Of a stretch of DNA of 59,514 nucleotides, positions 55,922 through 58,194 are shown in pieces. Source of the DNA: Gammaproteobacteria bacterium (GTDB lineage: Bacteria > Pseudomonadota > Gammaproteobacteria > Pseudomonadales > Porticoccaceae); contig QJWQ01000092.1 in the NCBI GenBank assembly GCA_003235325.1, positions 1 to 59,514 of the forward strand. Direction: 5' to 3'. Under the pieces are notes generated by a model, which ran no database searches, was not told where the DNA came from, and saw only the letters and a program-made list of their open reading frames with translations. Each line of letters begins with the position of its first letter. Positions within the stretch are counted from its first letter, which is position 1. Position numbers and translations under genes: made by a program.

Positions 55922-56651
55922 TATCTGTCTCCCAACGCGTATAATTAAGTTAATTCAGGTTCTTATTAATTAAACAAATCGAATCACACTAAATTCTAAG
56001 CAAATAGGCCATCGCTTTCAAAGGAAATTATCGTTAATCACTTTATTTTTTTGCATTTTTTGGTGTATTTTTAATTTTTAACCGATGATTACCCTTTTTT
56101 ACCCGATTATTAATCGCAGACAAATTCCTGCCGTGCATTCACCCATTCGGAGATTTTGTTTCTGCAGGTCACGCCCCGAAACGAATCCCTTCAATTCCCA
56201 ATAGTAAATTCTCTATCTGTTTGGCTATTCGGGTTCGACCAGATTTCTGTTACTTGAGCGGAAATTGAAGGCTGGATGGAAACTAATAGTGAAATAAGTC
56301 CGGCAGTAAACGCTGGCATTTCTGGTCAACTGGTCGGAAACAGCCAAACTCCCGGTGTCTCCCGTCCCGATTTCTAATCCTGCAGACGACCGCATATCAC
56401 CAGGAAATTTGCCGCCGGAATCAATACTGGATGGCAATATCAAGCCCGGAACTCATTTTGGGTGGCAGGGATGGAACCTTCGGAACGGGATTAGTTTCAA
56501 GCTGTAACAGGTGAGAAGTCGAAACTGACATCGACAATTACAGGTCAAACCCCCTATCCAAGTGTCAATGCAAGTCACACATTATCAAACATTCTCACGG
56601 GATAAGTTCCAGGGACTATAAAAAAGATTCGAGATCAGCGCTATTAACCCG
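55922..56651. other. long AT-rich non-coding region
   Basis: About 730 bases hold no credible gene. From 55940 to 56140 the sequence is strongly AT-rich with many A and T runs (for example TTTATTTTTTTGCATTTTTTGG), fitting the promoter region of the AT-hook gene on the minus strand and possibly a binding site for its own product. A 72-codon minus-strand frame at 56225-56443 looks spurious. I could not recognise a decayed gene. Confidence 0.5.
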
Positions 56652-56684
56652 GCGACTAAATAGGCATCCTTCCTATTTGGTCGC
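56652..56684 (-). ncRNA. stable hairpin with AAGGATG loop (minus strand)
   Basis: A 13-bp inverted repeat with one G-T pair (GCGACTAAATAGG and CCTATTTGGTCGC in plus-strand sense) encloses seven bases. On the minus strand the loop is AAGGATG, containing the GGA typical of CsrA/RsmA targets. It is part of a dense hairpin array up to about 56880. Confidence 0.5.
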
Positions 56685-56693
56685 GCGCCATTA

Positions 56694-56880
56694 AAATACT
56701 GGCGGAATTGTGCGAAATTCCTTGTATTTGAATGGTTTGCATTGGCCTTTGGCCAATGGCGGCACGTCCATGTGCCGCATTAACCCTGCATAGAATCTCG
56801 CTGGGTTAATAATACAAACCGACTTTTGGTTCGTTAATGGGCAACATTTATATTGAAACCTGGCCGTCTCGCCATTAACC
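56694..56880 (-). ncRNA. candidate structured RNA with four-way junction
   Basis: Inverted repeats follow one another almost without gaps. First, AAATAC/GTATTT encloses GGAATT/AATTCC (56694-56729). Second, an outer stem GGTTTG/CAAACC (56734-56739, 56815-56820) encloses three abutting hairpins: CATTGGCC/GGCCAATG (56740-56758), GCGGCAC/GTGCCGC (56759-56778) and ATTAACCC/GGGTTAAT (56779-56810). Third, GTTAATGG/CCATTAAC (56833-56879). On the minus strand the middle hairpin loop is ATGGAC, and ATACAAGGA lies at about 56728-56718. Strand and transcription are inferred; the fold is read directly. Confidence 0.55.
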
Positions 56881-57260
56881 ATTAGTCCTGAGCCAAATTC
56901 CACAACAGATTTTCCCTGAAAGCTATCCATCTCAGCCCTGAGACCAAGACCGAAACATAAAATACCATGTCATCGATTTCATTAAAAAATCCAGAGAAAG
57001 ATCCAGACCAAAGTGCAGCATTTGTCCGGGTCGTGAAAGTATGCAAACCCGTAGTGGCAATTGCCACCACTACTGAAATATCTCTTTTGGGGGATCAGAG
57101 TATGCTATTGGCTTTCTTTGACTACAGCCCGTCTGGCGCATCGCCGCCACTTTTCGTTTTTTTTCACGGGCGCCTTAACGATGTCTTCCCATAAGATTGT
57201 CTATGCACCACAACTCTACCAGTACCAGTCTGCACGCTGTAACACCGTGCTGAAGGACAC
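56881..57260. other. non-coding region downstream of adk
   Basis: No gene is recognised. Two more inverted repeats lie here: TCTCAG/CTGAGA at 56930-56943, and GTAGTGG/CCACTAC at 57051-57073 around a perfect 14-bp palindrome, GTGGCAATTGCCAC. Short frames on both strands (75 and 62 codons) have no family character that I can name. Confidence 0.4.
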
Positions 57261-57315: not shown

Positions 57316-57969
57316 TCAGTCCAATTGTTCGACCAATCGCCTTTGCACATCTTCCAACTCACCTACGCCGTCGATTCGCGTGTACTTTGGCGCTGCCGTC
57401 GAGTCTTGCTCAGCGTACTTTTTGTAGAAGTTTACCAGAGGTTCCGTCTGATCGTGATAGACCTTCAGCCTGTTACGTATGGTCTCTTCCTGATCGTCAG
57501 CGCGCTGGATAAGCGGCTCACCTGTCAAGTCGTCGACGCCTGATTTTTTTGGCGGGTTATGTTTAATGTGGTAGATTCTCCCGGAGGACTCGTGCACACG
57601 TCGGCCACTGAGTCGCGCGACGATCTCCTCATCCTCAACTGCAATTTCCACGACCTGATCTATAGCAATGCCCTCATTAATCAGCGCCTGGGCCTGGGGA
57701 ATGGTTCGCGGAAAGCCGTCAAAAAGAAAGCCATTTACGCAGTCCGGCTGTTGTATGCGTTCCTTGACCAGTGCGATGATCAAATCATCGGAAACCAGTC
57801 CTCCAGAAGCCATGATTCCCTGGGCCTTTTTTCCGAGTTCAGTGCCTGCCTTGACCGCGGCACGCAGCATGTCTCCGGTGGAGATTTGTGGTATTCCATA
57901 TTTTTCCTTAATAAATTGCGCCTGGGTACCCTTTCCGGCCCCTGGTGGGCCCAATAAAATAATTTTCAT
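57316..57969 (-). CDS. adk: adenylate kinase
   Basis: Adenylate kinase interconverts AMP, ADP and ATP. It has 217 residues from ATG 57969. The P-loop is [18 protein letters not shown], followed by [19 protein letters not shown] (AMP site), [18 protein letters not shown], the LID segment with [16 protein letters not shown] and the closing [13 protein letters not shown]. It is the long, four-domain-lid form without zinc cysteines (the LID has His, Ser, Asp), as in Enterobacteria. AGAGGAA lies about 11 bases upstream of the ATG. An in-frame TTG at 57990 is less likely. A hairpin at 58064-58085 lies in its upstream region. Confidence 0.97.
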
Positions 57970-58194
57970 GTCTGTTTGATTCCTCTTCAATTAAGTGAGA
58001 TTTCGTGTCATCGTCCGGCAGAACGCATTAGATAATGCCAGGATTTGATTAACTTAACGTCCTGTGGCATATCCGGTCATGCCACGACAGTGGATTCCGC
58101 AATGCCCGGATTAGTAAGGACCAGTTCGATCCTGATGATCGGGGCGAAACCGCATGAGGTAGAGTTGCGGTTGTAAATTCAGCCCATTGACACT

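What the first reader, a model, noticed from the sequence alone, without database searches (positions are those of the whole stretch)
56640..56880. Contiguous four-way-junction RNA fold in the largest non-coding gap
Between 56734 and 56820 an outer stem encloses three perfect hairpins (8, 7 and 8 bp) that abut each other with no unpaired base between them; only AATA separates the last from the closing stem. Further stems flank it on both sides (56652-56684, 56694-56729, 56833-56879). ATTAACCC at 56643-56650 is a second copy of the left arm of the third hairpin and could pair alternatively with GGGTTAAT at 56803-56810, which would give a switchable structure. Nearly every base of about 230 is accounted for by pairing. 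That is far from chance and matches no family I can name.
Basis: partly seen in the sequence, partly recalled or inferred. Interest (0 to 1): 0.8.

Follow-up and report, generated by a model that had tools for sequence, protein, structure and literature searches.

The report
Mobile DNA carrying paired regulator-binding hairpins
The folded stretch is one of about 65 copies of a small jumping DNA element that spreads with an IS630-type transposase, and in distant gammaproteobacteria its evolutionarily constrained hairpins carry, on one strand, two loops that match the binding site of the global regulator CsrA/RsmA, so it may be a mobile handle on bacterial gene control.

Summary
The fold is real (z about -7) but is not a lone RNA with a four-way junction. 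Window 56642-56811 is one copy of a roughly 166-bp dispersed repeat with about 65 copies in this genome. It has 10-bp terminal inverted repeats (TTAACCCGGC/GCCGGGTTAA) flanked by TA. A relative carries a 1.1-kb IS630-family element with exactly these ends, so this is a new IS630-type MITE family. The 'second ATTAACCC' is the left terminal repeat. Five hairpins (H1-H5) are constrained across Gammaproteobacteria: 56 of 57 pairs show changes on both sides. A second group of elements with different ends shares the architecture. The unexpected part: on the minus strand the H4 loop reads CANGGANG, the CsrA/RsmE high-affinity site, in 24 of 34 representatives under 70% identical, and H1 presents A(N)GGA in 28 of 34, while the stems vary. 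All 48 element-bearing genomes in a class-wide sample have csrA. I judge it a mobile CsrA/RsmA-binding module (about 0.5; MITE identity about 0.97). Against: no significant orientation bias, and a plus-strand UNCG loop in this lineage. CsrA binding is inferred, not shown.

The parts
56642..56643 (.). left TA dinucleotide (target-site duplication)
   Evidence: 28 of 30 full copies have TA here
56644..56653 (+). left terminal inverted repeat TTAACCCGGC
   Evidence: identical to the end of the 1,096-bp IS630-family element of relative G419; 128 such ends (up to 1 mismatch) against 13 for the reversed pattern in this genome
56652..56684 (-). H1 hairpin, 13 bp; minus-strand loop AAGGAUG
   Evidence: 10 of 13 pairs with changes on both sides in A1, 13 of 13 in A2; minus-strand GGA in 29 of 34 representatives under 70% identical
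56687..56736 (-). H2 hairpin: outer 13-bp stem, internal loop TGGC/TT, inner 6-bp stem 56704-56721, apical loop GTGCGA (plus)
   Evidence: covariation; conserved apical and internal loops; a 15-16 nt hairpin is inserted at the apical loop in some copies
56740..56758 (.). H3 hairpin, 8 bp
   Evidence: 97% of cells paired in 42 other copies; covariation
56759..56778 (-). H4 hairpin, 7 bp; minus-strand loop AUGGAC inside ACAUGGACGU (= ACANGGANGU)
   Evidence: CANGGANG in 24 of 34 representatives under 70% identical; the two N positions are the variable ones
56779..56810 (.). H5 hairpin: internal ATTAACCC pairs with the right terminal repeat; competes with end-to-end pairing
   Evidence: 91% of cells paired in other copies; alternative folds
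56800..56809 (+). right terminal inverted repeat GCTGGGTTAA (family consensus GCCGGGTTAA)
   Evidence: alignment of 43 copies; IS630-family element end
56810..56811 (.). right TA dinucleotide (target-site duplication)
   Evidence: 25 of 30 full copies

Best explanation
The feature is one copy of a non-autonomous IS630-type mobile element (a MITE) of about 166 bp. A transposase supplied in trans recognises the 10-bp ends and inserts the element at TA in intergenic DNA, mostly just after stop codons. This part is well supported. Between the ends lies a constrained array of hairpins. My preferred function, which is inferred: when a neighbouring transcript reads through the element on its minus strand, the RNA displays two CsrA/RsmA sites in apical loops. 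H4 is a hexaloop ANGGAX closed by C-G; H1 is usually a pentaloop AGGAX. That RNA would bind CsrA/RsmA dimers and either titrate the protein, as the CsrB/RsmZ RNAs do, or bring the host mRNA under Csr control. Shown: repeat, ends, TA flanks, donor-type IS in a relative, covarying hairpins, conserved GGA loops that are unpaired in silico. Inferred: transcription, CsrA binding, effect on the host.
For: Mobility: about 65 dispersed copies; element/flank identity 85% against 24-26%; YTA...TAR flanks; IS630-family element in G419 with DDE_3 and HTH domains and exactly the same TTAACCCGGC ends. Structure: 33 of 57 pairs with changes on both sides in 17 copies, 56 of 57 in 91, 0 of 500 shuffles. CsrA motif: H4 minus loop R-C-A-N-G-G-A-N-G-Y with C 96, A 99, G 95, G 96, A 95, G 99 of 101, and free N positions; in 34 representatives under 70% identity CANGGANG in 24, H1 A(N)GGA in 28, GGA in both loops in 26; the closing C-G pair is nearly fixed (0.39 bits) while the rest of the H4 stem varies (0.91-1.93 bits); both GGAs have median unpaired probability 1.0, other GGAs of the same RNAs 0.006. 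This matches the published high-affinity rule, hexaloop ANGGAX on a stem, and RsmZ stem-loops A(N)GGAX closed by C-G (PMC4005645). Strand: mismatches tolerated as G-U on the minus strand exceed those on the plus strand, 199:125, p 5e-5 uncorrected for relatedness. All 48 element-bearing genomes of the class sample have csrA, against 313 of 369 overall (hypergeometric 2e-4). In several relatives copies sit in mRNA-sense minus orientation between truB and rpsO, or upstream of trpB.
Against: No expression or binding data. Orientation relative to genes is not significantly biased: genes running into the element read its minus strand in 34+41 cases and its plus strand in 24+37. The strand asymmetry of wobble pairs loses significance after clustering at 80% (86:77). 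H3 is a cUNCGg tetraloop on the PLUS strand in 26 of 40 own-lineage representatives (7 of 71 elsewhere), a plus-RNA-like feature. In this very copy the minus strand folds slightly less well than the plus strand (z -6.2 against -7.0). Two sites per element is few compared with the eight GGA motifs of RsmZ. H2 has conserved loops that the CsrA reading does not explain.
Confidence: 0.5

Rival explanations
1. An IS630-type MITE whose hairpins act at the mRNA level in another way, as reported for ERIC and Correia elements: protecting or processing mRNA 3' ends through RNase III/E. The GGA loops would serve another protein or none.
For: Copies lie just after stop codons in both orientations (median 16 and 10 bp in relatives, 59 and 92 bp in the own genome); 0 of 144 copies inside genes; ERIC and Correia precedents (PMC10969869; PMC2229807).
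Against: Does not explain why exactly A, G, G, A and the closing C-G are fixed while the two N positions and the stems vary, in two different hairpins on the same strand.
Confidence: 0.3
2. DNA-level maintenance: template switching within quasi-palindromes, or a need for cruciform or single-stranded DNA hairpins in transposition, keeps the arms complementary without any RNA function.
For: Arms are mostly perfect Watson-Crick with few wobble intermediates; template switching can create changes on both sides without selection (general knowledge); IS630 ends at the borders.
Against: Conserved loop motifs with free N positions; excess of mismatches of one strand sense; the architecture persists between element groups with different ends.
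Confidence: 0.15
3. A stand-alone structured RNA with a four-way junction and a switch.
For: Strong folding z-score; competing pairings exist.
Against: The closing stem is outside the element and not conserved; about 65 dispersed copies with transposon ends.
Confidence: 0.03

Closest known systems
IS630-associated MITEs such as RUP (S. pneumoniae) and the Correia/NEMIS elements
   Same: 100-200 bp, dispersed, intergenic, short inverted ends, TA flanks; for RUP the ends match those of an IS630 element (PMC2229807).
   Different: Different ends and sequence. Here the interior is a five-hairpin array conserved by compensatory change across many genera and carrying conserved GGA loops; nothing like this is reported for RUP in that review.
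ERIC/IRU elements of enterobacteria
   Same: Structured intergenic repeats next to genes; orientation-dependent effects on mRNA reported (PMC2229807).
   Different: No sequence relation was seen; five separate hairpins here instead of one long imperfect palindrome.
CsrA/RsmA-sequestering sRNAs (CsrB/C, RsmX/Y/Z)
   Same: Apical loops A(N)GGAX closed by C-G, as in RsmZ (PMC4005645).
   Different: Only two strong sites, no terminator or promoter identified, mobile and multicopy; no Rfam match to these families.
Coxiella QMITE1/QMITE2 and MITE-derived sRNAs CbsR3, CbsR13, CbsR16
   Same: MITEs that give rise to sRNAs; QMITE2 is mainly in 3' untranslated regions (PMC5896051).
   Different: QMITE2 has 7-11 nt direct repeats and contains a GTAG REP; no CsrA motif is named in the passages read.

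Membership tests
MITE | short, no coding capacity, dispersed multicopy | tested here: met
   166-188 bp, about 65 copies in the genome; 0 of 60 copies inside predicted genes
MITE | terminal inverted repeats | tested here: met
   TTAACCCGGC/GCCGGGTTAA, 86% of end-to-end cells paired in other copies
MITE | target-site duplication | tested here: met
   TA on the left in 28 and on the right in 25 of 30 copies
MITE | empty orthologous site | tested here: inconclusive
   the orthologous site of L147 in G389 lacks the element but keeps a short TTAACC...GGTTAA hairpin at the same TA
IS630-mobilised element | same ends as an IS630 transposon | tested here: met
   G419: 1,096-bp element, 346-aa DDE_3 ORF, identical 10-bp ends
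IS630-mobilised element | transposase in the same genome | tested here: not met
   no DDE_3 hit in this 94.5%-complete genome; found in relatives
CsrA/RsmA-binding RNA | A(N)GGAX loop on a stem closed by C-G | tested here: met
   H4 and H1 on the minus strand
CsrA/RsmA-binding RNA | transcribed and binds CsrA | not testable with these tools
   no RNA-seq or binding data on hand
CsrB/RsmZ-type sRNA | match to the Rfam models | tested here: not met
   no match at gathering, none of these families even at E up to 10

The most novel reading that the evidence does not exclude
A superfamily of mobile elements across Gammaproteobacteria, using at least two different kinds of transposon end, disperses CsrA/RsmA-binding hairpin pairs through host transcripts, so that transposition itself rewires or titrates the Csr/Rsm global regulatory network.
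Probability: 0.4. Interest if true: 0.85.

Novelty: new variant of a known kind. Interest (0 to 1): 0.66.

Why it matters
MITEs are usually seen as inert leftovers of insertion sequences. Here the interior is held by compensatory changes across many genera and carries a recognisable binding site for one of the main post-transcriptional regulators of Gammaproteobacteria. If the RNA binds CsrA/RsmA, tens of dispersed decoys or cis sites per genome could set the free level of the regulator, and transposition would be a direct route to new Csr regulon members. This is testable with one gel shift and existing RNA-seq. At the least, the family and its covariance model give an annotation for a repeat that breaks assemblies (several contigs of this genome end inside it).

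Tried and rejected
Rfam at gathering and permissive thresholds: nothing credible. tRNA/tmRNA: none. Phage and plasmid collections: no real match. Integron attC site: considered from the AAC/GTT-like ends and dropped because the ends match an IS630-family element and TA flanks. Four-way junction: rejected. Own-genome IS630 transposase: none found; other transposase families were not searched. Clean empty site: the one ortholog found retains a 34-bp remnant. Orientation bias as proof of minus-strand function: too weak. Literature search by sequence words found only unrelated papers; the MITE papers read describe other elements. Gene contexts rest on a simple codon-score gene caller of my own.

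Full report
WHAT IS THERE. The stretch folds far better than shuffled sequence on both strands and the three abutting hairpins are present as described. Searching the window's own genome (3.26 Mb, 189 contigs) with 56600-56920 gave about 42 further places at 75-94% identity, all covering only window 56641 to about 56815. An alignment of 43 copies with flanks shows sharp borders. Inside, other copies match the window at 85% of positions; outside, at 24-26%. The unit begins TTAACCCGGC and ends GCCGGGTTAA (GCTGGGTTAA in the window copy) and is flanked by TA, with YTA on the left and TAR on the right. The genome has 128 end sequences (up to one mismatch) against 13 for the reversed pattern. A covariance model R1 of 17 copies from four genera finds about 65 copies in the genome.

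WHAT MOVES IT. The own genome has no DDE_3 (IS630) transposase. A search of 15 element-bearing relatives found IS630-type transposases in five. In G419, which also carries the element, at least four of these are nearly identical 1.1-kb elements with a 346-aa ORF (DDE_3 E 7e-39, HTH_33), and most copies end in exactly TATTAACCCGGC and GCCGGGTTAATA. A second relative (G075, L275) has the same type of end with one change. TA flanks and shared ends identify the repeat as an IS630-mobilised MITE. The interior does not look like the IS interior, so it does not appear to be a simple deletion derivative. One orthologous site (L147 in G314, compared with G389) lacks the element but keeps TTAACCCGGC-10 nt-GCCGGGTTAA at the same TA, inside what looks like a terminator palindrome. 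Such short units are rare but present in relatives.

STRUCTURE. Five hairpins, not a four-way junction. In 17 copies 33 of 57 pairs have changes on both sides (0 of 500 shuffles). In 91 sequences from across the class it is 56 of 57 (covariation score 0.63 against 0.16 shuffled and at most 0.11 slid, on an alignment fitted to the model). H5 and end-to-end pairing are alternatives. Some copies have an extra 15-16 nt small hairpin in the H2 loop.

DISTRIBUTION. R1 hits at E <= 0.01 in 10 of 112 genomes of the family, and at E <= 1e-4 in 28 of 391 of the order and 48 of 369 of the class, patchily and often in many copies. A DNA pattern scan names Microbulbifer, Marinobacterium, Marinagarivorans, Cellvibrionales and unnamed Gammaproteobacteria among the carriers; a few hits outside that class were not followed up. 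The class hits reveal a second group with other ends (AAGGAAGCTCTGA...TCAGAGGTTCCTT) and the same order of hairpins. Common descent of the two groups is likely from model scores up to about 69 bits but was not proved.

THE LOOPS. In 111 representatives under 90% identity (101 with a 10-nt H4 apex), the minus-strand apex of H4 reads R-C-A-N-G-G-A-N-G-Y: C 96, A 99, G 95, G 96, A 95, G 99 of 101, with both N positions free. In 34 representatives under 70% identity, CANGGANG is intact in 24, GGA in 28; H1 has A(N)GGA in 28 and GGA in 29; both loops have GGA in 26. The stems around them vary by 0.9-2.8 bits per pair, except the closing C-G of H4 (0.39 bits). Both GGAs are unpaired in silico (median 1.0), while other GGAs in the same RNAs are paired. 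This is the published high-affinity CsrA/RsmE site: a hexaloop ANGGAX directly on a stem; the RsmZ stem-loops are A(N)GGAX closed by C-G, and two of them lack the N (PMC4005645); the Rsm motif is given as CANGGANG in PMC6849547. H4 matches the hexaloop form; H1 mostly matches the pentaloop form. I infer CsrA/RsmA binding of the minus-strand RNA; nothing here shows it.

WHICH STRAND. Mismatches that would be G-U on the minus strand outnumber those that would be G-U on the plus strand, 199:125 in 133 sequences and 167:110 at 90% clustering, but only 86:77 at 80%. The direction fits the loop reading; the strength after correction for relatedness does not. Against it, H3 in this lineage is a cUNCGg tetraloop on the plus strand (26 of 40 representatives; 7 of 71 elsewhere).

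CONTEXT. None of 144 copies examined lies inside a predicted gene. Copies sit close behind stop codons: in relatives the median distance from a gene end is 10-16 bp, from a gene start about 110 bp. Genes running into the element read its minus strand in 75 cases and its plus strand in 61, not significant. In four genomes of two families a copy sits between truB and rpsO, and in three genomes of a third family upstream of trpB, in each case with the minus strand in mRNA sense (Pfam identities; for the trpB case Pfam gives only the PALP family and the name trpB is my reading of the sequence). The truB-rpsO copies lie at different distances from truB (61 and -16 bp), so separate insertions are possible. 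The own genome has one 64-aa csrA. The window copy lies between adk (57316-57990, minus strand, confirmed by Pfam) and an unidentified 364-aa minus-strand ORF. A terminator-like palindrome follows adk at about 57270 (seen by eye), so read-through from adk may be weak for this copy.

VERDICT. MITE identity about 0.97. Minus-strand CsrA/RsmA-binding function about 0.5. The main rival is another mRNA-level role of the ERIC/Correia kind. The family was not found in Rfam or in the papers searched; no exhaustive check against ISfinder or the subscription literature was possible.

Noticed in passing
L179-L191, L193-L196, L199, L200 (class-wide relatives): A second group of elements with ends AAGGAAGCTCTGA...TCAGAGGTTCCTT, the same hairpin order and CA(N)GGANG in both H1 and H4 loops; its transposase was not sought.
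   Followed up: partly
L262, L267, L270, L272, L274 (G419): A multicopy 1.1-kb IS630-family element with ends identical to the MITE: the likely type of autonomous partner.
   Followed up: yes
L136:1501-1673, L152:1501-1665, L153:1501-1671, L162:1501-1665: In four genomes of two families an element copy sits between truB and rpsO with its minus strand in mRNA sense; either repeated insertion or an old, retained copy.
   Followed up: partly
L154:1501-1649, L158:1501-1665, L166:1501-1654: A copy retained upstream of a trpB-like gene in three genomes of one genus, minus strand in mRNA sense.
   Followed up: partly
window 56704-56721 and relatives: The H2 apical loop (minus YCRCRY) and internal loop TGGC/TT are also conserved, and the CsrA reading does not explain them.
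   Followed up: no
L147 and its ortholog L278 (G389): The orthologous site carries only a short TTAACCCGGC-10 nt-GCCGGGTTAA hairpin at the TA in the middle of a terminator-like palindrome: a solo end-hairpin remnant.
   Followed up: partly
G000 contigs C7, C77, C108, C116, C119, C155, C186, C188: Several contigs end inside an element copy; this repeat breaks the assembly.
   Followed up: no
L201:1501-1987: A GGA-hairpin array (H1/H2/H3/H4 units) repeated in tandem, at least three times, without the MITE ends.
   Followed up: no
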